Shown here: positions 5,011-61,781 of the stretch, piece by piece
Numbering within the stretch: position 1 is the stretch's first letter
Layout: every line of letters begins with the position of its first letter
Assembly: GCF_000615445.1 (NCBI RefSeq)
Contig: NZ_BALY01000001.1
Span: 1 to 64,000 of the forward strand
DNA from: Lactobacillus hamsteri DSM 5661 = JCM 6256
Lineage (GTDB): Bacteria; Bacillota; Bacilli; Lactobacillales; Lactobacillaceae
Direction of reading: 5' to 3'
Length of the DNA: 64,000 nt
Program-made: the position numbers and the translations under genes
The notes under the pieces: generated by a model
Database searches by the model: none
What the model was told of the DNA's origin: nothing
What the model saw: the letters and a program-made list of their open reading frames with translations, nothing else

Positions 5011-7629
5011 ATGGCTAAGGCACAACAAAAACAAGATCTCACTGAAGATGAGAAAAACAAGCAAATTTATGACATGGTTGATAATTTGGTAAAAAAATCA
5101 CATGTCGCTTTAAATAAAATGGCTGATTTCTCACAAGAACAAGTTGATAAAATTTGTGAAGCTATTGCAACTGCCGGTGAACAAAATGCTTATCCACTAG
5201 CAAAAATGGCTATTGAAGAAACCAAACGTGGTGTTCTTGAAGATAAAACTACTAAGAACATGTACGCAAGTGAAAATATTTGGAACAGTCTTCGTCATGA
5301 AAAGACTGTTGGCATTATTGATGAAGATAAAGAACAAGGCTTAGTTAAGATTGCTGAACCTAAAGGTGTTATTGCTGGTGTTACTCCAGTTACTAACCCA
5401 ACTTCAACTGTTATTTTCAAGACAATGCTTGCTTTGAAGACTAGAAATACTATTATTTTTGGTTTTCACCCACAAGCTCAAAAATGCTGTGTAGAAACTG
5501 GAAAAATTTTACAAAAAGCCGCTGTTGCTGCTGGTGCTCCAAAAGATGCAATTCAATGGATCGAAGAACCAAGTTTGCAAGCAACTACTGATTTGATGAC
5601 CAATCCAGGTGTTCAAACTATTTTGGCAACTGGTGGTCCAGGTATGGTTAAGGCCGCTTATTCATCAGGTAAGCCAGCAATTGGTGTTGGTCCTGGTAAC
5701 GGCCCATCATATATTGAAAAGACTGCTAACATTGATCGTGCTGTTTACGATATCGTTTTATCAAAGACTTTTGATAACGGTATGGTTTGTGCTTCAGAAA
5801 ACTCAGTTGTAGTTGATACTGAAATCTATGACAAAGTTAAGGAAGAATTTAAGAACTGGAATTGTTACTTTTTAAACAAAGAAGAAATTACTAAGTTCGA
5901 AAAGCACTTTATTGATCCAAGAAGAGGAACTGTAGCTGGTCCTGTAGCTGGTAAGTCAGCTTATGAAATTGCTAAGCTTTGTGGTGTTGATGTACCAAAG
6001 GACACTAAAGTTATTATTGCTGAATATCACGGTGTCGGTAAGGAATTCCCACTTTCAGCTGAAAAACTTTCACCTGTATTTACTTTGTATCGTGCTAAGA
6101 GCCATGATGATGCATTTAAGATTTGTACAGACCTTCTTAACTATGGTGGTCGTGGTCATACTGCAGGTCTTCACTCAAGCGATAAAGAATTAATTAGAAA
6201 ATTTGCTTTGAAGATGGAAGCTTGCCGTATCTTGGTTAACTCTCCAGCTGCCTTGGGTGGTATTGGCGATCTTTACAACAATATGCTTCCATCCTTGACT
6301 TTGGGTACAGGTTCATATGGTGCTAATACTTTCTCACACAATATTGGTGCAAGAGACTTGCTTAACATCAAAACTGTTGCAATGCGCCGTGACAATATGC
6401 AATGGGTAAAAGTTCCAGCAAAAACATACTTTGAACATAATGCTGCAAACTACCTACGTCATATGCCAAATGTAAATCGTTTCTTTATCGTTACTGATGA
6501 AGGGGTTTCTGACCAAGGATTCGCTGATGAAATTACTGATATTATTTCTAAGCGCCGTGGTGCTAAAGAATATGAAGTATTCAAGGCTGTAACTCTTGAT
6601 CCAAATACTGACGTAATTAAAGATGGTGTTCACCGTATGAACATCTTTAAGCCTGACGTTGTTGTTGCCATCGGTGGTGGTTCAGTAATGGATGCTGCTA
6701 AGGCAATGCGTTTATTCTACGAAAATCCAAATATGACTTTTGATGAAGCTTACCAAAAGTTTTTGGATATTAGAAAAAGAGTAGTTCGTTTCCCAAAGAT
6801 TAATGGCGTTCAATTGGTATGTATTCCAACTACTTCAGGTACAGGTTCCGAGGTTTCACCAATTTCTGTAATTAGTGATGCTAAGACTGGTATTAAGCAT
6901 ACTTTATGTGATTATGCTTTAACTCCTGATGTTTCAATTGTTGATGATCAATTTGTACAAACTTTGCCAAAACGCTTAATTGCTTGGTCAGGTTTTGAAG
7001 CTTTAGGTCATGCTATTGAAAGTTATGTTTCAACTATGGCTACTGACTTCACTCGTGGTTGGTCACTTGAAGCTATTAAGACTATTTTTGAAACTTTGAA
7101 ACCTTCATATGATGGTGATTTAGATGCACGTAAGAGAATGCATGATGCAGCTACAATTGCCGGTATGGCATACTCAAATGCATTCCTTGGTTTGGAACAC
7201 TCAATTGCCCATACTGTAGGTTCAACATTTGATATTCCAAGTGGCGTAAGTGATGCGATCGTTTTACCACAAGTAATTCGTTTTAATGCTAAACGTCCAC
7301 AAAAACTTGCTATGTGGCCTCATTACTCAGTTTACCGTGCTGAAAGAGATTATGCTGATATTGCTAGAGCTTTAGGTTTAACTGGCTCAACCGATCATGA
7401 ATTAGTTGAAAAGTTAGTTGAAAAGATTATTGAATTAGCTCATTCAGTTGATATCAAGTTAGCCTTCAAAGAATATGGTGTTGATAAGAGCAAATTTGAC
7501 AGCAAAGTTGATGAATTGGCTGTTGAAGCTTATGGTGATCAAAATACTGTAACTAACCCAGTTGCTCCATTAATTACTCAAATTACTAGTTTGATGAAGG
7601 ACTGTTACTTGGGCAAGGGTATTAAGTAA
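5011..7629 (+). CDS. adhE: Bifunctional acetaldehyde-CoA / alcohol dehydrogenase AdhE
   Basis: An 872-residue fusion enzyme that reduces acetyl-CoA to acetaldehyde and then to ethanol, regenerating two NAD+. The N-terminal aldehyde dehydrogenase domain (about 15-440) has the catalytic Cys260 in GMVCASEN. The C-terminal iron-dependent alcohol dehydrogenase domain (about 465-872) has the glycine-rich GGGSVMDAAKA, the GTGSEVSP motif, and the metal-ligand region GHAIESY and LEHSIAHTVGS. Length and domain order are normal, and AdhE forms spirosomes in other bacteria. The upstream Rex site links it to NADH level. It is transcribed alone and ends at a terminator. Confidence 0.97.
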   Translation: MAKAQQKQDLTEDEKNKQIYDMVDNLVKKSHVALNKMADFSQEQVDKICEAIATAGEQNAYPLAKMAIEETKRGVLEDKTTKNMYASENIWNSLRHEKTVGIIDEDKEQGLVKIAEPKGVIAGVTPVTNPTSTVIFKTMLALKTRNTIIFGFHPQAQKCCVETGKILQKAAVAAGAPKDAIQWIEEPSLQATTDLMTNPGVQTILATGGPGMVKAAYSSGKPAIGVGPGNGPSYIEKTANIDRAVYDIVLSKTFDNGMVCASENSVVVDTEIYDKVKEEFKNWNCYFLNKEEITKFEKHFIDPRRGTVAGPVAGKSAYEIAKLCGVDVPKDTKVIIAEYHGVGKEFPLSAEKLSPVFTLYRAKSHDDAFKICTDLLNYGGRGHTAGLHSSDKELIRKFALKMEACRILVNSPAALGGIGDLYNNMLPSLTLGTGSYGANTFSHNIGARDLLNIKTVAMRRDNMQWVKVPAKTYFEHNAANYLRHMPNVNRFFIVTDEGVSDQGFADEITDIISKRRGAKEYEVFKAVTLDPNTDVIKDGVHRMNIFKPDVVVAIGGGSVMDAAKAMRLFYENPNMTFDEAYQKFLDIRKRVVRFPKINGVQLVCIPTTSGTGSEVSPISVISDAKTGIKHTLCDYALTPDVSIVDDQFVQTLPKRLIAWSGFEALGHAIESYVSTMATDFTRGWSLEAIKTIFETLKPSYDGDLDARKRMHDAATIAGMAYSNAFLGLEHSIAHTVGSTFDIPSGVSDAIVLPQVIRFNAKRPQKLAMWPHYSVYRAERDYADIARALGLTGSTDHELVEKLVEKIIELAHSVDIKLAFKEYGVDKSKFDSKVDELAVEAYGDQNTVTNPVAPLITQITSLMKDCYLGKGIK

Positions 7630-7696
7630 TACAATATAAAATCGCGTTAATTAGTTAATCGTAATACCAACATTGTCTAACTTTTGAGATAAATAA

Positions 7697-7730
7697 AAGA
7701 ATCGTAGTTAAGTACTACGGTTCTTTTTTA
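7697..7730 (+). terminator. adhE terminator
   Basis: A 12-bp stem (7697-7708 with 7714-7725, one G-T pair) and a 5-base loop are followed by a run of T. Confidence 0.85.
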
Positions 7731-7838
7731 CTATAAGCGAAAGTTATTTTTATGAATTTAATATAAGTATTTTTCAAATAATTGAAAATGATCTTTAATA
7801 AAAGTGAAGATAAATTGATGTAGAAGGGAAGAAACAAT

Positions 7839-8564
7839 ATGTCAATTAAAGAAGATGCCCAAAGAGCACATGCAAACTTATTAGAAAAAACTGATCCTGA
7901 AGCCTTAGAAAGAATTAACCATTTTACTTTTGATGAAGTTCAAGAAGATGTTGATTTGCCAGATAGAACCAAAATGCTTTCAACATTAGCTTATTTGTTG
8001 GGATGTCAAGGAGTAGATGAATATAAAATTATGCTTCCTGTTGCACTTGACAATGGTGTAAGTCCGGTTGAAGCAAAAGAAGTTTTATATCAAGCAATAG
8101 ATTACTTAGGCTTAGGCCGAGTAATGCCATTCTTTAAGGTTACTAATGACGTACTAACTGTACGTGGAGTTAAAATGCCGCTTGAAGGCCAAGCCACTAC
8201 GACAATGGAAGATCGTCTTGAAAAAGGTGAAGAGACACAAATGCGGTTATTTGGCCCACAAATGAAAGGATTTGCTGAAAAAGGAATTATTAATAAATGG
8301 TTAGTCGATAATTGTTTTGGTGATTATTACACTAGAAAAGGTTTAGATGATAATGATCGTGAAATGATTACCTTCTGCTATTTAGCCGCTCAAGGTGGGG
8401 TGGAACCACAACTTTTGGCACATGCTAAAGCAAATATTGGTTTAGGCAATGATAAAGAATTTTTGACAAAAATTGTTTTGCAAAATGAACCATTTATTGG
8501 TTATCCTCGTAGTTTAAATGCAATTAGTGTTGTTAACCAAGCCGACAGTGAACTTAATAAGTAA
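7839..8564 (+). CDS. Carboxymuconolactone decarboxylase (CMD) family protein
   Basis: A 241-residue, all-helical protein with two CMD-like repeats (about 35-120 and 145-225; the second includes FCYLAAQGGVEPQLLAHAKA). Family members include 4-carboxymuconolactone decarboxylase and AhpD-type peroxidases. The CXXC pair of AhpD is absent here, with only isolated cysteines in LLGCQG, NCFG and FCYL, so a thiol peroxidase role is doubtful. The actual substrate is unknown. RBS AGAAGGGAAG lies upstream. It stands alone between terminators. Confidence 0.75.
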   Translation: MSIKEDAQRAHANLLEKTDPEALERINHFTFDEVQEDVDLPDRTKMLSTLAYLLGCQGVDEYKIMLPVALDNGVSPVEAKEVLYQAIDYLGLGRVMPFFKVTNDVLTVRGVKMPLEGQATTTMEDRLEKGEETQMRLFGPQMKGFAEKGIINKWLVDNCFGDYYTRKGLDDNDREMITFCYLAAQGGVEPQLLAHAKANIGLGNDKEFLTKIVLQNEPFIGYPRSLNAISVVNQADSELNK

Positions 8565-8583
8565 TTTTGATATTAAAGAAAAT

Positions 8584-8618
8584 AAAAAGAAGATTGGATT
8601 TGTCCAATCTTCTTTTTT
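8584..8618. terminator. Bidirectional terminator between CMD gene and pckA
   Basis: A perfect 15-bp stem (8584-8598 with 8603-8617), loop TTTG. The A-run and T-run ends allow termination of both convergent genes. Confidence 0.88.
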
Positions 8619-8669
8619 AGTAGTAATTAAGAAATTCTATAATATTTTACTGTCATTAATTATTTATTG

Positions 8670-10328
8670 TTAACTTAATTCCTTGATAATACCTTCCAAG
8701 GTTTCCTTAGCTTCATCTTGGATAGGAGTTTCTGGATGCTCCTTATCATAATTGTTAAGCCAATCAAGACGATCTTGCATTCTTCTAGCTAAAGTCTTTT
8801 GATATTCAGGATCATCTAAGTGAACTTCATAGCCATCAATTGGTAAGTAAGATACGCCTTTGAAGTTGCCGAATGCTTTGAAGTCATTGTCAGTAATAGT
8901 ACCGTTGGCTAAATCTTCAATAATTTTCTTGGTAACTTCCTTAGGTATGTTTTTGCCCATAAATGCATCAGTATTCAAAATGTAGCAACTTGCGCCACGC
9001 TTAGTGAACAATTCCTTGAAGTCTCTATAGTCACCAGATACTGGATATGCACGGAATGGGTCTGCGAATGGTTCAATTACCAAGGTATTCATATCAAAGC
9101 CTTTAGGTAAGTTTTCTGCAGAAGTTCTCTTAGTTGCTAAAGTACAACCCATGGTTGTTGCTAAAACTGGATCATCAATCTTGAGAAGTGGAGGCAATGA
9201 ACCATCTTTCATAATCCAGAATAAAGCAGTAATTGGAGCCTTTTCAAAGTCGACACGATGAGGTGAAGTATAACGAGTCTTGATAACACGACCATTGTTG
9301 TTACGTAAGTCTTCAGTTACGATAACTTTTTTACCATTTGAGTCTAACGTTACGTCACAGTTCATAATGGTAGTGTAGTATTTGGTTTCATGGTGACCTG
9401 CTGGATAATCGTGAGTCTTGTCGAAGTATGAAGGCTCAAGAGCTACAGAAGAACCATCTTCACGAGAAATAATGAAAGCATCGTCGTGCAATACTGTGAT
9501 ATCGTATTTGCCATCGTACATTTCGTGAGTCAAGGTTGATTTACCTGAACCTGACAAACCATAGAATGCAAATACTTTATCATCTTTATCAGTAAAGTGG
9601 AATGACTTTTCACCACCATGACATGCTGTGTAACCATGACGGTGAGCAATTGCCCAAGCTAAGGTTAAAGTACCTTTCTTAAGTTCACCAAAGTAACGAA
9701 GGTTGAAGACAGCGGCACAGTTGTGAGGAGCGTCAAAGACACCTAAGCCCTTTGGGTAATCTGGATCTTGAACATTAGGGTCAAAGTAGAAGTAAATATC
9801 AGGTTCATCATATGCCTTTGACTTCTTATACATTTCGGCAGCTTCGTCATCAAAGAAGTGGAAGTTTAAAATGTATGAAAGTAAGTTGAATGCTTGATCT
9901 TCAGGCATCATAACGTGCGCTTTAACGGTAAATGATGGATCAAGACCTACTAAAACGGTAGCCTTTAAGTACTTTTGCTCGTGACCTGCGTAAATATCTT
10001 CACGCAAATTGCCGGCTAATGCTTCTGCATCTTCTTTAGGATCATCAGTAAAGTGACGGGCACTTGCAGTTCTTCCCAAGATTTTACCGTGATTATAAAC
10101 TAATTGAGTAGCACCTTGTGGCAAGCCTAATTCTTTAGTATGCAAAATTGGCAAGTCAGTAACGATAACTCCTGATTGTTTTTTGGCTAAGTTGTAGGCT
10201 TCTGCAACACTGGTAACTTCGTGAACGTTGTTGCCGTAAAAGGCACTTTCAATAGTGGCGCGTACACGACTGAACATTGGGTTAGCTTTTTTTAATTCAT
10301 CTTGTGAATAACGTTCTTTTGTACTCAT
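8670..10328 (-). CDS. pckA: ATP-dependent phosphoenolpyruvate carboxykinase
   Basis: A 552-residue PEPCK (ATP) that interconverts oxaloacetate + ATP with PEP + CO2 + ADP. In a fermenter without a full TCA cycle it probably works in amino-acid-linked carbon metabolism or anaplerosis; that is inference. The kinase P-loop [10 protein letters not shown] and the downstream HDDAF metal-binding motif are clear. I place the start at 10328 (MSTKERYSQ) because GGAGG (10340-10344) precedes it at normal distance. The longer in-frame ATG at 10373 has no RBS and falls inside the cre box. Confidence 0.95.
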   Translation of the reverse strand: MSTKERYSQDELKKANPMFSRVRATIESAFYGNNVHEVTSVAEAYNLAKKQSGVIVTDLPILHTKELGLPQGATQLVYNHGKILGRTASARHFTDDPKEDAEALAGNLREDIYAGHEQKYLKATVLVGLDPSFTVKAHVMMPEDQAFNLLSYILNFHFFDDEAAEMYKKSKAYDEPDIYFYFDPNVQDPDYPKGLGVFDAPHNCAAVFNLRYFGELKKGTLTLAWAIAHRHGYTACHGGEKSFHFTDKDDKVFAFYGLSGSGKSTLTHEMYDGKYDITVLHDDAFIISREDGSSVALEPSYFDKTHDYPAGHHETKYYTTIMNCDVTLDSNGKKVIVTEDLRNNNGRVIKTRYTSPHRVDFEKAPITALFWIMKDGSLPPLLKIDDPVLATTMGCTLATKRTSAENLPKGFDMNTLVIEPFADPFRAYPVSGDYRDFKELFTKRGASCYILNTDAFMGKNIPKEVTKKIIEDLANGTITDNDFKAFGNFKGVSYLPIDGYEVHLDDPEYQKTLARRMQDRLDWLNNYDKEHPETPIQDEAKETLEGIIKELS

Positions 10329-10477: not shown

Positions 10478-10512
10478 TGTTATAATGTTTGAACGTATGT
10501 ACGAATTGGAGG
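10478..10512 (+). promoter_or_regulatory. Promoter of the TerB/ATPase/helicase operon
   Basis: An extended -10 TGTTATAAT occupies 10478-10486, and GGAGG at 10508-10512 is followed by a GTG at 10521. The -10 covers the ATG at 10485, so that ATG cannot be the translation start. The leader would be only about 25 bases long. Confidence 0.7.
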
Positions 10513-10520
10513 CGACACAA

Positions 10521-12401
10521 GTGGATTTCAATGATTTAAGCAAATATGTTTATCAAAAATATGGTTTAAAATTTCAGCCTGCTATACCGGGTTCAAAGGA
10601 ATTATATGTATTGATGTCGCCACTTGATAGTTCATATTTTGCGATGATGTCACGAATAAAAAAAGATGATGCCGGCATTGATGGACCAGGTCATATTGCA
10701 ACTCTTGATTTACGGTGTGGAGATTTTTCTGATATGATTCGTGATTTGCCGGGATTTACTTCGGCTTTTCGTTTAAAAAGTAAAGATTGGGTTGGCGTGT
10801 GGCTTGATAGAGGAAATGATCAAGCTATCAAAAATGCGCTTGACTATGCTTTTAAGTTGGCAATGAATGGCGATAAGTTAAATATTGCTGATACCCAATA
10901 TATTTATGTTCCTGGCGAAAAAACGGATGAGAAATATCAAGAACAAAAAATAAAGCCACGTAGGGAAGTGATTAGGCGCAATAAACAAAAGCAAGTTCCT
11001 GATCAAATTCAAAAAATGCTTGAAAGTTATGATTACAGTATTTTGCCAGCAAAAGGCAGAGCGAAAAATTTCTATAATCAAGCTAAAATGATGGCAGATT
11101 ATTCAGAAGAATATGATCAACCTGCAGCTTTTAAACGCTACTATCCAACTTATCACGATATGATGGTGCCACAGTTAAGGACATACTTTACTTGGCGTAA
11201 AAAAATTAGAGAGGGAAAGTTTGAAAAGACTAGCACATCATATGCTTATGTTTATATCTATGAATTATTGAATAATATTGGCGTTAAAAATTCGGATGAT
11301 GGTTTTGAAAAACTGAATAAATTTAAAGAATATTATGCCCAGAAATACGATGTTGAGATAGTAGGCAATCTTGATAGATGGCTCAAAGATTATGTGTTGT
11401 ATTATCATTTAGATCGTGAAAAAGTTAATCAAGTTTTTGAAAATGAGATAGCAACGGATAAAGATTATCATGTTTTGTTACATCCTAATGATTATTCAAT
11501 TTCTGAGCTTGTTGAAGTTTTTAAACGATTGTCGCCGTATCTTTCTACTTGCTTGTCTTACAAGAAGTTAGGAGATAATTTCGATCAAGTCTTTGCAGAA
11601 ATATGGAATCGAATTTTAGTTTTAAAAAGAAAAAATAATATTTCCTTTTTCAGTAAATACGTCGCTCATCGTAATTTACTTGTTGAAAATCTGTTTACGG
11701 GCGCAGTTTTTTATCCGCAAAAAAATGAATTGCAAAGCTATATTATTGACCCGGAACGAAAATATTTATATAAGGCTGATAAATGGTATGTTAGTGTATT
11801 GCATCCTGTTAAAAGGCAGCGTAGCGAGCTTAATACTTTTATTCATGAAGTAGATCGCTTAATGCGGATAAAATTTCGACTTGGACGGCCGCTTAAGCCA
11901 AGAAAATTAGAAAAAGTTTTTTTACAAGCAATTGAAACTGGGATAGATACTTACCAGCAAAAAGTAGAAGACGCTAAACGGCCTAAAATTGAAATTAATT
12001 TTGCAAGTTTGGGACAAATTCGTGCGGATGCTTCTGTAACGCGAGACAGTTTGTTAACAGATGAAGAAAAACAACTGGAAGCAGAAGAGGAGAAAAAAGA
12101 AACGCAAAAGATTAAAGAAAGTAATCCACCTGTGGAAAAAGAGCCACAAACAAAAGAAACTTACGGTTTAAGTAAAGATGAGCTGTTTTTCTTAATGTCC
12201 TTACTAACTAAAAAGTCATGGCAGGATTACGTTAAAAAGCGCCATTTAATGGCTTCAATTTTAGCGGATAATATTAATGATAAGTTATTCGATGAAATCG
12301 GGGATGCCGTTATCGAGTTCAATGATCAAGACCAACCAGAAATTATTGCTGATTATTTGCCGGATTTAGAAGAAATGTTTTTATCAGATGAAGGAGAATG
12401 A
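10521..12401 (+). CDS. TerB-N/TerB-C domain protein, SngA-like (Shango defense)
   Basis: A 626-residue protein with a TerB N-type region at about 190-330 (LRTYFTWRKKIREGKF is the best-conserved stretch) and a TerB C-type region at about 500-626, joined by a charged Glu/Lys linker. TerB domains occur in membrane-associated stress and defense modules. It is the first of three tightly spaced genes (TerB, ATPase, helicase), the composition described for the Shango anti-phage system, where the TerB protein is SngA. The GTG start at 10521 is chosen for its GGAGG; upstream starts fall in the promoter. Function here is inferred from operon architecture. Confidence 0.72.
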   Translation: MDFNDLSKYVYQKYGLKFQPAIPGSKELYVLMSPLDSSYFAMMSRIKKDDAGIDGPGHIATLDLRCGDFSDMIRDLPGFTSAFRLKSKDWVGVWLDRGNDQAIKNALDYAFKLAMNGDKLNIADTQYIYVPGEKTDEKYQEQKIKPRREVIRRNKQKQVPDQIQKMLESYDYSILPAKGRAKNFYNQAKMMADYSEEYDQPAAFKRYYPTYHDMMVPQLRTYFTWRKKIREGKFEKTSTSYAYVYIYELLNNIGVKNSDDGFEKLNKFKEYYAQKYDVEIVGNLDRWLKDYVLYYHLDREKVNQVFENEIATDKDYHVLLHPNDYSISELVEVFKRLSPYLSTCLSYKKLGDNFDQVFAEIWNRILVLKRKNNISFFSKYVAHRNLLVENLFTGAVFYPQKNELQSYIIDPERKYLYKADKWYVSVLHPVKRQRSELNTFIHEVDRLMRIKFRLGRPLKPRKLEKVFLQAIETGIDTYQQKVEDAKRPKIEINFASLGQIRADASVTRDSLLTDEEKQLEAEEEKKETQKIKESNPPVEKEPQTKETYGLSKDELFFLMSLLTKKSWQDYVKKRHLMASILADNINDKLFDEIGDAVIEFNDQDQPEIIADYLPDLEEMFLSDEGE

Positions 12402-12405
12402 TGAA

Positions 12406-13737
12406 ATGCCAGAAAGAAAACGCAGAGTACCAAAAAGAATAGCTCAAACAGTTTTAAATTCTTTAAAAGGTGGAGTTGTACCGCGAATTGGCCTTCCTTA
12501 TATTACTGTTGGTCGAAAAGCAGAGATTGAAGCCTTGCTTCATGATGTTGATGTAATTTCTGAAGGTGGTGCATCTTTTCGCTTTGTTGTAGGGCGCTAT
12601 GGTTCTGGAAAAAGTTTTTTGCTACAAACTATTCGTAATTATGTAATGGATAAAAATTTTGTCGTTGTAGATGGTGATTTATCCCCAGAACGACGTTTGC
12701 AAGGCACTAAAGGACAAGGACTTGCGACATACCGTGAACTTATTCAGAACTTATCCACAAAAACGCGCCCTGAAGGCGGTGCATTAACCCTAATTTTGGA
12801 TCGCTGGATCAATTCTGTGCAATCAGAAGTTGCTCAAGAAACAGGACTTAGTGATTCTGATCCTAAATTTACTACCGAAATGGATAAGAAAATTTATGCG
12901 GTAATTGCCAACTTGAACGAAATGGTACATGGTTTTGATTTTGCCAAATTATTAAATATGTATTATCACGCCTATCTTGAAGGTGATGACGAAACTAAAG
13001 CCAAAGTAATTAAGTGGTTCCGTGGTGAATATGCACACAAAACAGAAGCTAAAAAAGAGTTAGGCGTTAGCATTATCATTTCAGATGATGATTGGTACGA
13101 ATACTTAAAACTTTTCGCAGCCTTTTTCAGACAAGCAGGCTATGCTGGTTTGATGATTATGATTGATGAATTGGTCAATATTTATAAGATACCAAATTCA
13201 ATTAGTCGTCAGTACAATTATGAGAAGATTTTGACCATGTACAATGATACTTTGCAAGGCAAAGCCAAATATCTTGGTATTATTATGGCTGGGACTCCAC
13301 AGGCTATTGAAGATCGGCGCCGTGGCGTTTATTCATACGAAGCTCTCCGTTCTCGTCTTTCAGAAGGTAAATTTTCTAAAGCTGGAGCACGAGATATGTA
13401 TGCACCTGTGATTAAGCTTGATCCATTGACTGCCGAAGAAATGTTGGTTTTGACAGAAAAGTTAGCGGATATGCACGCCAATCTCTATGGCTATGAACGT
13501 ACAATTACTGACGATGATTTAGCAAAATTTATCAAGATTGAATATGCTCGCATTGGTGCCGATACTAATATTACGCCTCGTGAAGTTATTCGTGACTTTA
13601 TTGAACTTCTCGATATTGTTTGGCAAAATCCCCAAACCAATATTGAAGAATTGCTCAATTCAGATCAATTTTCTTATACCAAGTCTGAAGCAGTGTCCGA
13701 CAAGAAGGATGAAGATTATACAGAATTTACAATTTAG
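12406..13737 (+). CDS. BREX-type P-loop ATPase (DUF2791/BrxD-like), SngB-like
   Basis: A 443-residue ATPase of the DUF2791/BrxD-like family. Walker A is GRYGSGKS at about 62-70 and Walker B is LMIMIDEL at about 250-257. The start at 12406 (MPERKRR) is preceded by AGGAGA at 12392-12397; the earlier ATG at 12388 overlaps that RBS. The gene starts 4 bases after the previous stop and leaves 15 bases to the helicase gene, so the three are co-transcribed. In Shango the middle component is an ATPase of this kind, and in BREX the related protein is BrxD, but no other BREX gene is present here. Confidence 0.78.
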   Translation: MPERKRRVPKRIAQTVLNSLKGGVVPRIGLPYITVGRKAEIEALLHDVDVISEGGASFRFVVGRYGSGKSFLLQTIRNYVMDKNFVVVDGDLSPERRLQGTKGQGLATYRELIQNLSTKTRPEGGALTLILDRWINSVQSEVAQETGLSDSDPKFTTEMDKKIYAVIANLNEMVHGFDFAKLLNMYYHAYLEGDDETKAKVIKWFRGEYAHKTEAKKELGVSIIISDDDWYEYLKLFAAFFRQAGYAGLMIMIDELVNIYKIPNSISRQYNYEKILTMYNDTLQGKAKYLGIIMAGTPQAIEDRRRGVYSYEALRSRLSEGKFSKAGARDMYAPVIKLDPLTAEEMLVLTEKLADMHANLYGYERTITDDDLAKFIKIEYARIGADTNITPREVIRDFIELLDIVWQNPQTNIEELLNSDQFSYTKSEAVSDKKDEDYTEFTI

Positions 13738-13752
13738 AAAAGGAAACTAGCA

Positions 13753-15969
13753 ATGGACGTTTTTGATCATTATGCACCCTTTATTCAAAATTATATTTAT
13801 GAGCATAATTGGCAGACTTTGCGTCCGATTCAAGTTGCAGCGGCCGAAGAAATATTTGAAACGGATCATAATGTGCTTTTGTCGGCATCAACGGCTTCAG
13901 GAAAAACTGAGGCAGCTTTTTTTCCAATTTTGTCAGAAATTTATGAAGAACCCAGTGATTCAATTCAAGTTTTGTATATTGCGCCATTGAAGGCATTAAT
14001 CAATGATCAGTATGATCGTTTAACGGATTTGTGTGTTGATACGAATATAAAAGTTTGGCGCTGGCATGGGGATGTTGCCCAATCCCAGAAGAGGCGCATG
14101 TTAAAAAAGCCATCAGGAATTTTGCAAATAACGCCTGAATCTCTTGAAAGTTTCATGATCAATAAGCATATGGATATTCCGCGACTTTTTCATGGTTTGA
14201 AATTTATTGTCGTTGACGAGCTTCATTCTTTTCTTAGAAGCGATCGTGGCGGGCAAACTTTTTCTCTAATTGAAAGAATTTCAAAATTAGCCAATATAAA
14301 TCCACGCCGAATTGGCCTTTCTGCAACGATCGGTAATCTTGATGCAGCAAGTAAATTTCTGGGAGCAGGCAGTAGACACGCGACAGTTGCTCCGAAAGTT
14401 CAAAATGATCGCCAAGTTTGGCGACTTTCAATGGAGCATTTTTATCAAACTAATCCACAGGCCGCCAGCGAAGATTTTGACCCAGCAGAAATTGTCGAAC
14501 CAAAAACCGATAAAGCTCCGGCTCTAGCTGATCCAGGAATTGGCTATATTTTTGAACATACTCGTGGCAAAAAGTGCTTGGTTTTTACAAATAGTCGTGA
14601 GGAATGTGAAGCTGTTTGTCAGGAACTTAGAGAATATTGTCGCTACAATCATGAGCCTGATCGCTTTCTAATTCATCATGGTAATTTGTCGCCGGCCCTT
14701 AGGGAGACAGCCGAACAGGCGATGAAAGATGAAGATTCTTACATGACGACATGTGCGACAGCCACTTTGGAATTAGGAATCGATATTGGAAAACTAGAGT
14801 CAGCTTTTCAAATTGATGCACCGTTTACTGTCTCGGGCTTTTTGCAAAGAATGGGAAGAACCGGACGACGTGGTGATCCGCCAGAAATGCACTTTGTCAT
14901 GCGTGAAGAGCATCCTGAATCTAGAACTATGCTTCCAGATTTAATTCCATGGTCGCTTCTTCAGGGGATTGCTTTGGTTCAGCTTTATATCGAAGAAAAA
15001 TGGGTTGAGCCACCTGAACCTAATCGTTTGCCGTACAGTCTTTTATACCATCAAACGATGAGCACGCTTGCTTCAAGTGGAGAAATGACTCCGGCTGAAC
15101 TTGCTTCACGCGTTTTGACTTTGTCATATTTTCATAATGTTAGTCAAGATGATTACAAGGTATTATTAAGACATTTGCTTAAAACAGATCAGATTCAGCG
15201 AACGGAAAATGGCGGTTTGATTTTGGGCCTTGCTGGTGAAAGAGTTGTGAATAACTTTAAGTTTTATGCCGTTTTCCAAGAAAATGAGGAATTCAGTGTT
15301 CATGCCGGCAGTGAAGAATTGGGAACGATCGTTAAGCCGCCTCCTGTTGGAGATAAAATTGCGATTGCAGGCCGTGTTTGGGTAGTCGAATATATTGATC
15401 GCAAGCGGCATCAGGTTTATTGTCATGGTGTTGAAGGCAGAATTCCCGCTTATTTTGGGGATGTTCCAGGTAATATTCATCCGCATATTTTGCATAGAAT
15501 GCGAAAGATTTTAAATGAAAAAACAATGTATCCATATTTGATGAAAAATGCGAAGGCGCGTTTGACGCAAGTGCGTGATACTTGTAATATCGCGGGGTTA
15601 CCACAGAAGCAATTGATTAATTTAGGCGGGAAAATGTGGGCATTCTTTCCGTGGACTGGTTCGTATGCCTTTTTAGCATTGGAACGTTTAATCAGGATAA
15701 AATGTAGCGATCGTTTGAACTTGCGTGGTTTTAATTCATCGCGTCCTTATTATATGGAATTTGCGATGGATGCAACTGAAGAAGAATTTTTCAAAATTTT
15801 GAAAGAGGAAGCTGCAAAAGATTTCAATCCAATGGATTTAGTTTATCCAAAAGAAGTGCCTGTGTTTGACAAATATGATGAATATTTGCCTGATGAATTA
15901 ATTCGTAAAGAGTTTGCGGAAAGCGTGCTTGATGTTAAAGAAATGAAAGGGTGCGTTGCACAAATGTAA
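13753..15969 (+). CDS. Lhr-like DEAD/DEAH superfamily 2 helicase, SngC/BrxHI-like
   Basis: A 738-residue superfamily 2 helicase. Motif I is STASGKTEAAF (about 45-55), motif II DELH (about 155), motif III SATIG (about 190) and motif VI QRMGRTGRRGD (about 364), which gives a complete catalytic core. A long C-terminal region (about 420-738) resembles Lhr/BrxHI accessory domains. RBS AAAAGGAAAC precedes the ATG. It is the last gene of the TerB-ATPase-helicase operon, which closes at a strong terminator. All motifs look intact, so the system is probably functional. Confidence 0.82.
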   Translation: MDVFDHYAPFIQNYIYEHNWQTLRPIQVAAAEEIFETDHNVLLSASTASGKTEAAFFPILSEIYEEPSDSIQVLYIAPLKALINDQYDRLTDLCVDTNIKVWRWHGDVAQSQKRRMLKKPSGILQITPESLESFMINKHMDIPRLFHGLKFIVVDELHSFLRSDRGGQTFSLIERISKLANINPRRIGLSATIGNLDAASKFLGAGSRHATVAPKVQNDRQVWRLSMEHFYQTNPQAASEDFDPAEIVEPKTDKAPALADPGIGYIFEHTRGKKCLVFTNSREECEAVCQELREYCRYNHEPDRFLIHHGNLSPALRETAEQAMKDEDSYMTTCATATLELGIDIGKLESAFQIDAPFTVSGFLQRMGRTGRRGDPPEMHFVMREEHPESRTMLPDLIPWSLLQGIALVQLYIEEKWVEPPEPNRLPYSLLYHQTMSTLASSGEMTPAELASRVLTLSYFHNVSQDDYKVLLRHLLKTDQIQRTENGGLILGLAGERVVNNFKFYAVFQENEEFSVHAGSEELGTIVKPPPVGDKIAIAGRVWVVEYIDRKRHQVYCHGVEGRIPAYFGDVPGNIHPHILHRMRKILNEKTMYPYLMKNAKARLTQVRDTCNIAGLPQKQLINLGGKMWAFFPWTGSYAFLALERLIRIKCSDRLNLRGFNSSRPYYMEFAMDATEEEFFKILKEEAAKDFNPMDLVYPKEVPVFDKYDEYLPDELIRKEFAESVLDVKEMKGCVAQM

Positions 15970-15998
15970 AAGCCAGAGTCAAGCGACTCTGGCTTTTT
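15969..15998 (+). terminator. Terminator of the TerB/ATPase/helicase operon
   Basis: A perfect 12-bp stem (15969-15980 with 15985-15996), loop AAGC and T-run, directly at the helicase stop codon. Confidence 0.9.
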
Positions 15999-20979: not shown

Positions 20980-21085
20980 CTGGACTTCTAATATTTAAAT
21001 AGATTATCTATAAGTTTCTAGTCAGCTAGACAACTGATTGGAAACTTTCTTTATATATTTATATTGACCGAAAGGAATGATTTAT

Positions 21086-22111
21086 ATGAAAAAAACAAAA
21101 ATTATTGGCTTGACTGCAGCTGCACTTTTGGCTGTCGCACCAATTGCTTCAACTTCAATCGTAAGTGCCGCAGATGCTACACAGACAGGCAATACAGTTA
21201 CACAAAATACTAATACAAATCCAATTTCAGATTTTCCAATTGCTATTCAATTTACCCAAGACGGCAAGACGCAAAGCATTAATCCGGATGGGATGTACTT
21301 CCAAGTATCTCCAAATTCCAGCTTCAATCCTACAGAATTTACTGGAAGCAACGGCAATCAATTTAAGATTGTTGCTGCTAATAATCAAAAGGTGACCGTT
21401 GATTCTAACACAGTTGATACGTCAAAGGCTGGCAGCGTTGGAACGGTAAAGTTGACTGTTGGAACGGATACTGTAACCTATAAGATTTTCGTAGCGCCAA
21501 CGGGACAAAAGACACTTAATATTGCTCCTCGTCAATGGATTAAGGCTTTAGGAGATTCGAATATATTCTTTAGTCAAGGCCAAAAAATTTATGTAGGCAA
21601 TAATACTCAAATTATTAATGGCATATCATATTCTCCAATTTCTTCTGTTTCTCAAGAAGAAGCCAACAGCAAGGCAAAGGGCTGGCTGGTTGAAACCAAA
21701 TATTTAGCCAATGAAACTCCTGCTCCAGAAACTGTTGAAAAAACTGTAATGCATAAGGCTTTGGTTTACGATGATGTTGGCGGATCAAAAGTTAGACACA
21801 TAGCTGCTTTTACAACCGTAACAGTTGATCAAGAAATTAAAACAATTCAAGGTACAAGATATTATAAGATTTCTGATCGTCCAGATTATCTCAAGGTTTC
21901 AAACATTGACGGCACCAAGCGTACTTTAACCAAGAATGCCTACATCTACGCAACAAGCAAGCGTCGTGCAGACAGAACAGTTCTTAAAAAGGGCGAAACA
22001 ATCACAACATACGGTGGCTCATACAAGTTCAAGAACGGCAAACGTTACTACAGAATTGAAGGCGCCACAGCTACTAACAAGCGCTATGTTAAAGTAGCAA
22101 ATTTTGAATAA
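21086..22111 (+). CDS. Secreted SLAP-domain (S-layer type) protein
   Basis: A 341-residue exported protein. The signal peptide (about 1-28) ends at a VSA/AD site. A central beta-rich region follows, and the C-terminus holds two SLAP repeats (about 215-275 and 277-341, including GTKRTLTKNAYIYATSKRRA and TTYGGSYKFKNGKRYY) that attach non-covalently to wall polymers. The start at 21086 is chosen over 21077 because GAAAGGA lies 10 bases before it. It is smaller than the S-layer protein at 42060 and is probably an S-layer-associated protein. Confidence 0.88.
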   Translation: MKKTKIIGLTAAALLAVAPIASTSIVSAADATQTGNTVTQNTNTNPISDFPIAIQFTQDGKTQSINPDGMYFQVSPNSSFNPTEFTGSNGNQFKIVAANNQKVTVDSNTVDTSKAGSVGTVKLTVGTDTVTYKIFVAPTGQKTLNIAPRQWIKALGDSNIFFSQGQKIYVGNNTQIINGISYSPISSVSQEEANSKAKGWLVETKYLANETPAPETVEKTVMHKALVYDDVGGSKVRHIAAFTTVTVDQEIKTIQGTRYYKISDRPDYLKVSNIDGTKRTLTKNAYIYATSKRRADRTVLKKGETITTYGGSYKFKNGKRYYRIEGATATNKRYVKVANFE

Positions 22112-28252: not shown

Positions 28253-28717
28253 TTAGTGAGGGGATGGATAGGACTTGCCGCCAGAAACGGCATTGTAGAT
28301 CTGGTCATTGATATACTTTTCTACTACTTCTTTAGACATATTTCCTACACTGCTAAAGTAATAGCTTGGTGACCATAAATGGCCGCCCCACATCTTACTT
28401 TGCTTAATTTCGGGATGATTCTGGAAAAATAAAAAAGCACTTCTTCCTTTGAGTGCTTTGACCACACTTGAACCTGATTTCGATGGCCTAAAGCTAATAA
28501 GCAAATGAATATGCTCAGGCATTACCTCCATTTTTTCGATTTTGATTTGATTATCTGCGGCTATTTGCTTGAGCAGGTCTTGCATTTCTTGCGCCAGGTC
28601 TTGATTATTAAAGATTTGATTGCGGTATTTAGTACACCAAATCAAATGATAGTGCGCATTATAGACGTAGTGCTTTTCATAGCCTGCGTCTTTTATTTTG
28701 TCTCTTTTATTATTCAT
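28253..28717 (-). CDS. tnpA: IS200/IS605 transposase TnpA (Y1 HUH)
   Basis: A 154-residue Y1 HUH single-strand transposase. The HUH motif is H69-x-H71 in MPEHIHLLI and the catalytic tyrosine is probably Y135 in EVVEKYINDQ. It cuts and joins single-stranded element ends at the subterminal hairpins. Length is normal and no disruption is visible, so the element may still be mobile. Its stop overlaps the left-end hairpin. Confidence 0.93.
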   Translation of the reverse strand: MNNKRDKIKDAGYEKHYVYNAHYHLIWCTKYRNQIFNNQDLAQEMQDLLKQIAADNQIKIEKMEVMPEHIHLLISFRPSKSGSSVVKALKGRSAFLFFQNHPEIKQSKMWGGHLWSPSYYFSSVGNMSKEVVEKYINDQIYNAVSGGKSYPSPH

Positions 28718-28815
28718 AGTATAATCCTCTTTTGCTTATTATGTACCTGCTTACTGTTGATTATAAGATATACATAGGCTATAATCAAACTGCAATAATA
28801 CGAGGAGGTGAAAAT

Positions 28816-30147
28816 ATGAAGAGAATGAGCAGTTTAGCCTACCATTTTGGCATTAAGCTTCGCTTTTATCCTAGTTCCAAACAAAAGAAAATGATCAAGC
28901 TGAACTATGATGCGCAGCGCTTTGTCTACAACTCTTATGTAGGACGCAATCGGACTAATTATCATGCTCGACGTTTTCTGGCTGCTAAACAGCACCAAGC
29001 AATGCCATTTGCTTTCTCTGCTCTCAATAGCTATGAAACCAAGCTGGCAGAAACAATAGCTGCTAATGACGAGTTATTAGCTAAACCCAAGAGCATTCGT
29101 GATGCCTATGATTTTTTGCGGGTTAAGGAAATTGATAGTTTAGCGCTTGCCAATGCTATTCAAAATTATCATAAAGCTTGGAACAATTACCGTAAAATCG
29201 GACATGGAATCCCGACTTTCCACAAGAAAAGCAGCGCTTGGTCATACCAGACTAATTGCCAATACCCCAAGCAGTCAGAAGCTTATCTTGATAACGGAAC
29301 AGCTAAGTTCATTGATGTTAAACATGTTAAGTTGCCTAAGCTGGGAGTCGTCCGCATTGCTGGTTTTAGAAAACTAATTAAAGATCGTTTGCTTAATCAT
29401 ATTCCAACTAGAATCGGGACAGTTACAATTAAAAAGACGGCTGATGATCAGTTCTATTTATCAATGCAATTAGGCAGCGATATTTCTTTTGTCCAAGAAT
29501 TGCCCACAACGCAGAGTCAAATTGGGATAGATCTTAACCTTGATAATTTCTTGACGGAGTCAAACGGATCAATGGTTGCCAATCCACGTTTTTACTGTAA
29601 AGCAAAAAAGAAGCTTGCCCGCGCTCAACGTGTGCTCTCTCGCAGACAAAGACGAGCAAAGCAAGAAGGACGCAATTTGCGGACAGCAAGGAATTACCAA
29701 AAGCAGCGCCTGGCAGTCGCTAAGCTGCATGACAAGATTCGCAGGCAGCGTGAAAACCTCTTGCAAGTCCTCTCAACTGCATTAATCAAAAACCACGATT
29801 TAGTAGTTGCCGAGGAACTAAGAAGCAAAAACATGTTAAAGAATCATGCTCTTTCTCAATCCATTTCAGATGCAGGCTGGCGCAGCTTTCTTAACATGCT
29901 GGCTTATAAAGCAGATTTATATGGCAAGCAGTTCAAGACAATTGATCCAAAATTTACCACGCAAAGGTGTCATCAATGCGGCACGATTATGGGACAAAAT
30001 GGCTATTGCAAGCTTAAGCTGCAGGATCGTGAATGGACTTGTCCTGTCTGTCAGACTCACCACATTCGAGATTGGAATGCGGCAGTGAATATCTTAGAAA
30101 AAGGACAGGGAATTTGGCAGAATCCCAGAAAAGAAAAAGCAGCCTAA
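28816..30147 (+). CDS. tnpB: RNA-guided nuclease TnpB (IS605 OrfB)
   Basis: A 443-residue TnpB, the ancestor-type nuclease of Cas12. The RuvC-like residues are D at about 239 (GIDLNLDN), E at about 333 (VVAEELRS) and D at about 418 (RDWNAAVNI). The zinc-ribbon cysteines CHQC and CPVC lie between the last two. AGGAGGTG precedes the ATG at 28816. All catalytic positions look intact. Known TnpBs use an omega-RNA made from the 3' end of the element to cut the empty donor site and so promote element retention. Confidence 0.92.
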   Translation: MKRMSSLAYHFGIKLRFYPSSKQKKMIKLNYDAQRFVYNSYVGRNRTNYHARRFLAAKQHQAMPFAFSALNSYETKLAETIAANDELLAKPKSIRDAYDFLRVKEIDSLALANAIQNYHKAWNNYRKIGHGIPTFHKKSSAWSYQTNCQYPKQSEAYLDNGTAKFIDVKHVKLPKLGVVRIAGFRKLIKDRLLNHIPTRIGTVTIKKTADDQFYLSMQLGSDISFVQELPTTQSQIGIDLNLDNFLTESNGSMVANPRFYCKAKKKLARAQRVLSRRQRRAKQEGRNLRTARNYQKQRLAVAKLHDKIRRQRENLLQVLSTALIKNHDLVVAEELRSKNMLKNHALSQSISDAGWRSFLNMLAYKADLYGKQFKTIDPKFTTQRCHQCGTIMGQNGYCKLKLQDREWTCPVCQTHHIRDWNAAVNILEKGQGIWQNPRKEKAA

Positions 30148-59446: not shown

Positions 59447-59495
59447 AAAAAGAGAAGAATGAACACTCGTTCGTCCTTCTCTTTTTTGTTATAAT
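59447..59495 (+). terminator. GH73 terminator followed by the pcrA promoter
   Basis: Stem 59447-59457 with 59476-59486 and an inner GAAC/GTTC stem, then T residues. An extended -10 TGTTATAAT (59487-59495) begins right behind it and should drive pcrA. Confidence 0.75.
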
Positions 59496-59532
59496 AGTGA
59501 GGCTATATTTTTTATACGTGAAGGGAATCAAA

Positions 59533-61781
59533 ATGAGCAAAGAATCTATTTTAGATGGCTTAAATCCACAACAAAAACAAGCTGTTGAAACTACTGAAGG
59601 TCCGCTTTTAGTAGTTGCCGGAGCAGGATCAGGCAAAACTTCAGTTTTAACGCGTCGTATTGCTTACTTGGTTGAAGAAAATAATGTTGCCCCTTGGAAT
59701 ATTTTGGCAATTACCTTCACCAACAAGGCAGCAAACGAAATGCGTGAACGTGAGCAAAAATTATTAGGGCCTGCGGCTGAAAGTATTTGGATGTCAACTT
59801 TCCACGCTCTTTGTGTGCGTATTTTGCGCCGTGACGCTGATAAAATCGATTATAGTCATAACTTTTCAATTGCAGATTCAGCTGAACAATTGACTTTAGT
59901 GAAGCATATTGAAAAGGACATGAATATTGATCCTAAAATGTATGATCCACGTGGGATTTTGTCAGCAATTTCTAACGGCAAAAACGATTTGCTTACTCCT
60001 GAAGCTTTTGAAATGAGTGCTTCTTCACCATTTGAAAAGATGGCGGCTAAGATTTATACGGAATATCAACGTCGTCTTAAGCGTGATCAAATTATGGATT
60101 TTGATGATTTAATTATGCAAACTTTGGTTTTGTTTAAAAAAGATCCAGAGACTTTGCACTATTATCAAAATAAGTTCCAATATATTTTGGTTGATGAGTA
60201 CCAGGATACCAACGAAGCACAATATGAATTGACCCACGCTTTGGCTGCACAATACAAAAATATTTGCGTAGTTGGGGATGCCGATCAGTCAATTTATGGT
60301 TGGCGTGGCGCTAATATGGAAAACATCATGAATTTTGAAAATGACTACAAAAACGATGGTGTTAAAACCGTTAAATTGGAACAAAATTACCGTTCAACAG
60401 GCCATATTTTGTCAGCGGCTAATTCCGTTATTAAAAATAATCAAAACCGTAAAGCCAAGAATTTATGGACTGATCAAGCGACGGTAAAAAGATAACTTAT
60501 TACAAGGCCCAAAGCGGTGATGATGAAGCCCACTTTATTATTTCTAAGATTCAGGAAGAAGTTAAAGATAATAAGCGCAGCTATAAGGATTTTGCGGTTT
60601 TATACAGAACTAACGCACAATCACGTACAGTCGAAGAAGCTTTTGTTAAGTCAAATGTTCCTTATCAAATTGTTGGTGGACATAAATTTTACGATCGTAA
60701 AGAAATTAAAGATATCATGGCTTACCTTAAGCTTGTTGCCAATCCGGCCGATACAATGAGTCTTAACAGAATTATTAACACGCCAAAACGTGGAATTGGT
60801 GTAGCAACTGTAGATAAGTTGTTTGCTTTTGCGGATGAAAATCATTTTAATACTTTGGAAGCCATGGATAATGTGGGAATGTCCACAATTTCTAATCGTG
60901 CCGCTTCTAAATTAAGTGATTTTGGTACTAAACTTCATGATGCAATTAATTTTGCTAAGGATCACAGCGTAACAGGTTTAACTGAAAAGATTCTAGAAGA
61001 CTTTGATTACAGCTCAACTTTAAAGGCTGAGCATACTATTGAAGCAGATACGCGTTTGGAAAACTTGGATGAATTTCTTTCAGTAACCAAGCGTTTTGAT
61101 GATAGTTATGAACAAGAGGAAGATGATTCTAGCCCATTAAGCGATTTTCTTGCTGAAGTTTCGCTTCTTAGCGATCAGGATGATCTTGATGAAGATGATA
61201 ATCAAGTTGCTTTAATGACTTTGCACGCTGCTAAAGGTTTGGAATTTCCGGTTGTCTTCTTGATCGGTATGGAAGATGGGCTTTTCCCACTTTCACGTTC
61301 AATGATGGATGATGGCCAGCTTGAAGAAGAACGTCGTTTAGCCTACGTAGGGATTACCCGTGCTAAGAAGGAACTCTACTTAACCAATGCATATTCAAGA
61401 ATGATGTATGGCCGTATTCAAAATAATCCCCCTTCAAGATTTTTGGATGAAATTGACGCTAAGGATATGGATGTGGAAAATCCAAATGCTGGCAATTCGT
61501 TTTTGGCCGGTCATTCTTATCAATCCCAAGCTGCACCATTTGCCCGTAAAGATGAACGTGCTCGCGCACAAGTTTATACAACTGCTAAAAAGGCTTCAGG
61601 TGCTGTCGGTGCTGAAAAGAAAGGCTGGAATGTTGGCGACCAAGTTGAACATAAAGCATGGGGACGCGGCGTTGTTATGAAGGTTAATGGCGAAGGTGAA
61701 GATATGGAACTTGATATTGCATTTGCAAATAAGGGTGTAAAACGTCTTCTTGCTGCCTTTGCACCGATTAAGAAGGTATAA
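59533..61781 (+). pseudogene. pcrA: ATP-dependent DNA helicase PcrA (UvrD family), frameshifted as read
   Basis: A superfamily 1 helicase for repair and plasmid or phage replication. It starts at ATG 59533 ([17 protein letters not shown]) with GAAGGGA upstream. Walker A is AGAGSGKT, motif II is VDEYQD, and [13 protein letters not shown] follows. The frame stops at 60495 after QATVKR. Restoring one G (ACGGGT for ACGGT near 60487) continues as [18 protein letters not shown] through TLHAAKGLEFP and GITRAKKELYL to 61781, a normal 749-residue PcrA. pcrA is essential in related Gram-positives, so a sequence error is much more likely than a true mutation. Confidence 0.92.

What the first reader, a model, noticed from the sequence alone, without database searches (positions are those of the whole stretch)
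10478..15998. Intact three-gene Shango-type anti-phage operon in a Lactobacillus chromosome
Three tightly packed genes encode a TerB-N/TerB-C protein, a DUF2791/BrxD-like ATPase and an Lhr/BrxHI-like helicase, under one promoter and one terminator, between housekeeping genes. TerB + ATPase + helicase is the published Shango composition. All Walker and helicase motifs look intact. Shango was studied in Proteobacteria, so a Gram-positive version with a much larger bipartite TerB protein may act differently. No other BREX gene is present.
Basis: partly seen in the sequence, partly recalled or inferred. Interest (0 to 1): 0.75.

Follow-up and report, generated by a model that had tools for sequence, protein, structure and literature searches.

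The report
Lactobacillus Shango defence operon, SOS-box promoter
A bacterial three-gene anti-virus system already known as Shango sits in this Lactobacillus chromosome, but with a remodelled, fast-evolving sensor-like protein and a promoter that appears to carry a DNA-damage (SOS) control site.

Summary
In detail: three packed, intact genes (sngA, sngB, sngC) hit the PADLOC Shango profiles at 1e-80, 1e-198 and 3e-279. It is a Shango system, so a known kind, already catalogued in Gram-positives. What differs is architecture: SngA has a YjbR "double-wing" fold, TerB_N and TerB_C, but no TerB core and no N-terminal membrane helix. Three further findings are new to me. (1) SngA is far more divergent than SngB and SngC (median 38% against 82% and 77% identity), and one between-species recombination tract ends at the sngA/sngB junction. 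(2) A LexA-like box overlaps the promoter in 31 of 37 Lactobacillaceae operons (shuffle mean 1.5); with the -10 it is the only invariant part of a 14-promoter alignment. (3) In the genus the operon is mostly syntenic but patchy (32 of 75 species), with one clear fresh loss beside an insertion sequence. Best reading: an SOS-inducible defence in which SngA picks the target and SngB/SngC remodel phage DNA. Identity is near certain, LexA control likely, mechanism inferred.

The parts
10478..10486 (+). extended -10 promoter element TGtTATAAT
   Evidence: sequence; -10 conserved in the 14-promoter alignment
10491..10503 (+). LexA-like operator GAACGTATGTACG
10508..10512 (+). ribosome-binding site GGAGG for the GTG start at 10521
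   Evidence: sequence
10485..12401 (+). sngA, ORF as called; likely true start GTG 10521 (626 aa)
10521..10868 (+). SngA N-terminal MmcQ/YjbR double-wing domain
   Evidence: profile A4 vs 2kfp/3h9x 1.9e-14; Z 17.1, rmsd 2.0 over 115 residues
10980..11615 (+). SngA TerB_N domain
   Evidence: 3.1e-30
11946..12371 (+). SngA TerB_C domain
   Evidence: 1.8e-25
12388..13737 (+). sngB, BrxD-like AAA+ ATPase
12592..12615 (+). SngB Walker A GRYGSGKS
13153..13170 (+). SngB Walker B MIMIDE
13753..15969 (+). sngC, BrxHI/Lhr-like SF2 helicase
13888..13908 (+). SngC motif I STASGKT
14215..14226 (+). SngC motif II DELH
14845..14868 (+). SngC motif VI QRMGRTGR
15969..15996 (+). intrinsic terminator hairpin

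Best explanation
It is a Shango anti-phage system of a Firmicute subtype. Shown: gene content, order, intact motifs, domain architecture, conserved promoter box, and much faster protein evolution of SngA. Inferred: LexA represses the operon through the box just downstream of the -10, so phage infection or other DNA damage raises its level. SngA is the recognition subunit; its double-wing domain (and perhaps a winged helix in TerB_C) contacts DNA or a phage product and is under arms-race pressure. SngB, an AAA+ ATPase of the BrxC/BrxD family, loads or activates SngC, a BrxHI-like helicase, on the marked DNA. SngC then unwinds or strips phage replication intermediates. No nuclease family was hit in any of the three proteins, so damage would come from unwinding itself or from host nucleases.
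For: PADLOC SngA/B/C 1e-80, 1.2e-198, 2.9e-279. YjbR fold; the N-terminal profile is found in 43 of 44 complete Lactobacillaceae SngA rows, the miss being cut at a contig end. SngA less conserved than SngB in 560 of 561 Lactobacillaceae pairs and 990 of 990 pairs of other, mostly clostridial, operons; median dN ratio A/B 4.4 over 553 pairs. LexA-like box in 31 of 37 operons against a shuffle mean of 1.5, max 4; upstream of adhE 0/14, CMD 0/18, sngB 0/36, sngC 0/36, DLD 0/13, NTR 0/16, DUF3021 0/1. PEPCK 8/12 is the same sngA box in the shared divergent gap. LexA gene present; GAACNNNNGTTTG box at 42 of 44 lexA loci. Published anti-phage activity of P. aeruginosa Shango (PMC10250203, passages). 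BrxD proposed to load or activate BrxHI (PMC12839542, passages).
Against: No phage or LexA experiment. The window box GAACGTATGTACG differs by one base from GAACNNNNGTTC, and its right half differs from the genome's own lexA box (GTTTG). The strict pattern GAAYRNRYGTWCG occurs twice in the genome against 4 for the backward control, and one-mismatch matches in the window are at chance (19 against 18.1). The box is missing in the 3 Lentilactobacillus operons and less clear in the clostridial set (14 of 55, shuffle mean 3.4, max 10). The YjbR domain is in 38 of 56 clostridial-type SngA, not all, and Pfam alone is weak for the window's own stretch (0.055, below cut-off). SngA dN/dS is still about 0.15, so positive selection is not shown. 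Long syntenic residence is unusual for a defence system. The winged-helix match of TerB_C is weak (Z about 5-6).
Confidence: 0.6

Rival explanations
1. A host DNA-repair or replication-restart module, induced by DNA damage, that hinders phages only as a side effect.
For: SOS-like box, mostly syntenic residence in the genus, no nuclease family hit and no PADLOC hit at 1e-10 among 10 nearby ORFs.
Against: SngA evolves several times faster than its partners; patchy presence and a fresh loss; SngB relatives on 691 plasmid records, 542 of them typed conjugative (three of the four opened have an annotated TerB-type gene); published anti-phage activity in P. aeruginosa.
Confidence: 0.2
2. Same system, but the promoter box is an operator for another regulator, or for SngA itself through its double-wing DNA-binding domain.
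For: In most operons the box carries a preferred RTRY core and a GTWCG or GTGCG right half, whereas lexA boxes read GAACNNNNGTTTG; in the own genome only one other place matches the strict pattern.
Against: Four divergent operons carry perfect GAACNNNNGTTC palindromes (L065, L067, L068, L072), three of them on the other side of the -10, as expected for LexA.
Confidence: 0.25
3. Abortive infection: SngA triggers SngB/SngC to attack host DNA and stop growth, rather than remove phage DNA.
For: Repression by LexA would fit a costly or toxic system; presence changes at least 5-7 times on the rpoB tree, with one clear loss.
Against: No toxin or nuclease family was hit; [quoted passage not shown]
Confidence: 0.2

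Closest known systems
Shango of P. aeruginosa PA14 and E. coli (Johnson 2023, PMC10250203, passages; Millman 2022, cited there, not read)
   Same: Three genes: TerB-type protein, BrxD-like ATPase, BrxHI-like helicase; all three PADLOC profiles hit
   Different: SngA here is smaller, has an N-terminal YjbR domain, lacks the PF05099 TerB core and the N-terminal hydrophobic helix seen in Salmonella, Phaeobacter and viral-contig SngA; LexA-like promoter box. PA14 SngA itself was not compared
BrxD-BrxHI pair of type 2 BREX
   Same: ATPase and helicase families and their linkage (PMC12839542 passages)
   Different: No PglZ match in the genome; SngB scores 658.6 on SngB against 176.2 on BrxD
Druantia DruE
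   Same: DruE, SngC, BrxHI and DpdJ were placed in one potentially distinct SF2 clade (PMC12278908, passages)
   Different: DruE profiles have 1460-2055 positions and DruE carries nuclease (PLD) domains (PMC13192584, passages); no such family was hit in the 738-aa SngC
MmcQ/YjbR proteins (PSPTO_3016, E. coli YjbR)
   Same: Fold and profile match of SngA residues 13-127; YjbR fusion to TerB mentioned in PMC7641849 (passages)
   Different: Here part of a defence operon protein; no paper in the library holds both 'Shango' and 'YjbR'

Membership tests
Shango (three-gene definition, PADLOC) | SngA, a TerB-type protein | tested here: met
   SngA profile 1e-80 over 71-631; TerB_N and TerB_C
Shango (three-gene definition, PADLOC) | SngB ATPase, better on SngB than BrxD | tested here: met
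   658.6 vs 176.2 bits
Shango (three-gene definition, PADLOC) | SngC helicase, better on SngC than BrxHI | tested here: met
   926.8 vs 427.9 bits
Shango (three-gene definition, PADLOC) | Adjacent genes in the order A-B-C | tested here: met
   same order in Salmonella, Phaeobacter and E. coli
Shango (three-gene definition, PADLOC) | Anti-phage activity | not testable with these tools
   no experiment
Proteobacterial-type Shango (a branch, not claimed here) | PF05099 TerB core in SngA (the Pfam listed for Shango in PMC10952713, passage) | tested here: not met
   0 of 55 Firmicute-type SngA at E<=0.1; found in 6 of 6 proteobacterial or viral-contig SngA scanned, two of them partial
Proteobacterial-type Shango (a branch, not claimed here) | N-terminal hydrophobic (membrane) helix | tested here: not met
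   window max KD19 0.79; 5 of 5 Proteobacterial-type rows (4 distinct proteins) 1.99-2.5 at the N terminus; 1 of 79 other SngA >1.6
BREX type 2 | PglZ | tested here: not met
   0 matches in the 96%-complete genome
BREX type 2 | separate BrxC besides BrxD | tested here: not met
   only one PF10923 match in the genome, SngB itself
LexA/SOS regulon | LexA box at the promoter | tested here: met
   GAACGTATGTAC, one mismatch from the recalled consensus, just after the -10
LexA/SOS regulon | Box identical in type to the genome's own lexA box | tested here: inconclusive
   same half-site spacing; right half GTACG vs GTTTG
LexA/SOS regulon | Binding and DNA-damage induction | not testable with these tools
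   no experiment

The most novel reading that the evidence does not exclude
Lactobacillus Shango is an SOS-controlled immune system that is switched on by phage-caused DNA damage. SngA acts as an exchangeable, arms-race specificity subunit that binds DNA through a YjbR domain, in place of the membrane anchor and TerB core of the Proteobacterial form. One defence core (SngB/SngC) would then be driven by two different sensing heads.
Probability: 0.4. Interest if true: 0.7.

Novelty: new variant of a known kind. Interest (0 to 1): 0.5.

Why it matters
Shango's mechanism is listed as unknown in a 2026 review (PMC12926258, passages). The Firmicute form names concrete handles: a likely recognition subunit, a candidate DNA-binding domain with solved relatives, and a promoter site that predicts induction by mitomycin C. 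A defence operon under LexA control in lactobacilli would link phage damage, prophage induction and immunity in a way that is easy to test.

Tried and rejected
Rejected: SngA being unusually large. Rejected: part of a larger BREX locus. Rejected for the genus as a whole: fresh mobile island (mostly syntenic). Not claimed: positive selection on SngA (dN/dS about 0.15). Not claimed: a known fold, or the lack of one, for the middle of SngA (barely tested). Led nowhere: the SngC model is poor (pLDDT 63.8) and was not searched; no SngA or SngB relative in the phage collection (five viral contigs in IMG/VR do hold SngB relatives); E. coli-type LexA pattern upstream of 5 Proteobacterial-type sngA: at best 2 mismatches; the promoter scan gave fewer hits than its shuffles (23 against 32.3) and was not used. 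The one other strict box in the genome lies on contig C50 among ORFs I did not recognise as SOS genes; they were not scanned. A perfect GAACNNNNGTTC at window 59461 lies before a pcrA-like gene but inside a terminator-like palindrome, so I do not use it as a positive control.

Rows dropped: one search left out L053 (contig end), L063 (ORF caller found no sngA) and L066 (broken frames); the set also lacks these three. The rise from 31 to 34 of 37 boxes came after re-reading three miscalled starts and is post hoc. The 14 promoters were picked by me out of those with a box. The rpoB tree used 60 of 75 genus genomes; 4 of the 15 left out carry Shango. One search kept 45 non-Lactobacillaceae operons with complete genes and SngA of 450-800 aa; its label 'Clostridia' includes bins titled Chloroflexi, Bacteroidia and others. 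The 44 lexA loci come from 43 genomes. The 44 and 56 SngA rows include some genomes twice and rows from which its profile was built.
Full report
What is there. Three plus-strand ORFs lie at 10485-12401, 12388-13737 and 13753-15969, overlapping by 14 nt and spaced by 15 nt, between a divergent PEPCK gene and a convergent DUF3021/LytTR pair. The PADLOC profiles SngA, SngB and SngC are hit at 1e-80, 1.2e-198 and 2.9e-279; SngB and SngC score far above their BREX cousins BrxD and BrxHI. Catalytic motifs are present. A 12-bp terminator hairpin follows sngC; the consensus scan had not listed it. The draft genome (96% complete) has no PglZ match and one BrxC/BrxD match.

Start site. ATG 10485 overlaps the -10 hexamer TATAAT (10481-10486). 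GTG 10521 follows GGAGG by 8 nt, and several relatives start at the equivalent codon. I take 626 aa as the likely product. Residue numbers below use the 638-aa ORF.

Architecture of SngA. Pfam finds only TerB_N and TerB_C. In 55 SngA of Firmicute type both are found in all 55, and PF05099 (TerB core) in none at E<=0.1. SngA of Salmonella (L091, 769 aa), Phaeobacter (L093, 841 aa) and two viral-contig records (L174, 746 aa; L177, 776 aa) carry the TerB core and begin with a hydrophobic helix. The E. coli TUM17543 CDS is 769 aa by its coordinates (not scanned). The Paenibacillus protein (573 aa) has TerB_N and TerB_C without the core. The N-terminal stretch of the window protein is only weakly YjbR by single-sequence searches (Pfam 0.055, below cut-off; phmmer to 2kfp 0.06). 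As a profile of 30 SngA it matches PSPTO_3016 (2kfp/3h9x) at 1.9e-14. AlphaFold (mean pLDDT 88.9) plus Foldseek (1.5e-6) and VIA-align (Z 17.1 for 3h9x, 9.8 for E. coli YjbR) agree. The profile finds the domain in 43 of 44 complete Lactobacillaceae SngA rows (the miss is cut at a contig end), 38 of 56 clostridial-type rows and 0 of 9 Proteobacterial, viral-contig and Paenibacillus rows. [quoted passage not shown] No paper in the library holds both 'Shango' and 'YjbR'. Matches of residues about 560-638 to winged helices are weak (Z 5-6) and may mean little.

SngA evolves fastest. In 34 Lactobacillaceae operons the median pairwise identity is 38% for SngA, 82% for SngB and 77% for SngC; SngA is below SngB in 560 of 561 pairs and below SngC in 559. 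The same holds in 990 of 990 pairs of 45 other, mostly clostridial operons. In close pairs dN/dS is about 0.15, 0.05 and 0.06 (6 non-independent pairs): relaxed or diversifying relative to its partners, but not above 1. One pair of species, G028 and G005, breaks the pattern: SngA has dS 0.04 while SngB and SngC have 0.93 and 1.22. The near-identical tract (95-100% in 150-nt steps) covers PEPCK and all of sngA and stops near the sngA/sngB junction. This is one event; the trees of SngA and SngB are otherwise broadly alike.

Promoter box. Right after the -10, most Lactobacillaceae operons carry GAAYRTRYGTWCG or close forms. With the Gram-positive LexA palindrome GAACNNNNGTTC (consensus recalled; two papers opened for it did not print it), 31 of 37 regions of -150..+60 have a match with at most one mismatch, against a mean of 1.5 and a maximum of 4 in 100 dinucleotide shuffles; 34 of 37 after three starts were re-read. 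The three Lentilactobacillus operons lack it. With homology-set starts the count is 33 of 35, and 0 of 14, 18, 36, 36, 13, 16 and 1 for adhE, CMD, sngB, sngC, DLD, NTR and DUF3021. PEPCK scores 8 of 12, and in all 8 the box is the one beside the sngA start in the shared divergent gap. These operons are related, so the counts are not independent; the shuffles do not correct for that. In an alignment of 14 promoters the invariant columns fall in the -10 and the box alone. In L065, L067, L068 and L072 the box is a perfect palindrome, and in the first three it lies upstream of the -10. LexA is encoded, and 42 of 44 lexA loci have GAACNNNNGTTTG upstream, so the Shango box is similar but not identical in its right half. 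Among clostridial and other loci 14 of 55 have a box against 3.4 expected and a shuffle maximum of 10: suggestive only. In the 64-kb window one-mismatch matches are as common as chance (19 against 18.1), and the stricter pattern is no commoner in the genome than its backward control (2 against 4), so a single box would mean nothing; the weight lies in its conservation at one place. A search for papers with at least three of LexA, anti-phage defense system, SOS response and Shango listed 10, none holding 'Shango'.

Distribution. SngB is in 32 of 75 species of the genus and in 17 of 301 sampled genomes and 4 of 40 genera of the family; one of the 17 is a 34% match beside which no SngA was found. 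Of 31 fetched genus loci 26 share a flank gene of the window (adhE, CMD, PEPCK, DLD or NTR). Three species have adhE, PEPCK and NTR together without Shango (L081-L083), and G008 has adhE and NTR without it. On an rpoB tree of 60 species presence needs at least 7 changes (5 forced by starred branches) against about 20 for shuffled labels; one 8-species clade has it throughout, one 21-species clade lacks it. Such counts cannot tell gain from loss. In G033, sister to a carrier, a transposase gene (IS3-like by my reading, not scanned) stands in place of the 3' part of sngA and all of sngB and sngC, leaving a 401-codon relic: a clear loss. The trees place Lentilactobacillus and Limosilactobacillus rows with Lactobacillus rows rather than outside them, in forks that are partly unresolved and rooted only at the midpoint, which suggests transfer between genera. 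Shango was already reported in the B. cereus group and in rumen bins (PMC11811056, PMC13356809; passages). So the Gram-positive form is not new as such. A search for Shango with Lactobacillus and 'defense system' listed 5 papers, none on this system by title.

How it may work. Nothing here shows mechanism. SngB belongs to the BrxC/BrxD ATPase family, and PMC12839542 (abstract, outline, passages) classes BrxD as ORC/Cdc6-type AAA+ and suggests that it loads or activates the BrxHI helicase. SngC groups with BrxHI, DruE and DpdJ (PMC12278908, passages). DruE acts late on ssDNA-containing replication intermediates (PMC13192584, abstract and passages). By analogy SngA marks the target and SngB/SngC act on phage DNA. 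Anti-phage activity of the PA14 system is published (PMC10250203, passages). My estimates: Shango membership 0.95, defence role 0.8, LexA control 0.65, this mechanism 0.4.

Noticed in passing
window 59497-60495 and 60717-61781: A PcrA/UvrD helicase appears as two ORFs (UvrD N-terminal part, then UvrD_C plus tudor part); a frameshift in the draft or a real split, not resolved.
   Followed up: no
window 59461-59472: Perfect GAACNNNNGTTC palindrome upstream of the pcrA-like gene, but inside a terminator-like inverted repeat.
   Followed up: partly
window 28253-30147: IS200/IS605-type pair: Y1 transposase and an OrfB/TnpB protein with a Cas12f1-like TNB domain.
   Followed up: no
window 21077-22111: Protein with SlpA surface-layer domains downstream of an Rgg-type regulator and a tRNA-Thr.
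   Followed up: no
L242 11901-14538: Fresh loss of Shango in G033: IS3-like transposase gene (by reading, not scanned) beside a 401-codon sngA relic.
   Followed up: yes
L046 about 5584-9560: Recombination tract of 95-100% identity between G028 and G005 covering PEPCK and sngA, ending near the sngA/sngB junction.
   Followed up: yes
L176 4063-5976: A resolvase N-terminal domain is in frame with the remainder of a Proteobacterial-type SngA (TerB, TerB_C) in a viral-contig record.
   Followed up: no
L247 1398-8484: E. coli Shango broken up by an IS3 element between TerB-type pieces and a frameshift in the ATPase gene, as annotated.
   Followed up: no
L066 7602-13071: In G011 sngA and sngC match in several pieces; real decay or assembly errors (its PEPCK is in pieces too), not resolved.
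   Followed up: no
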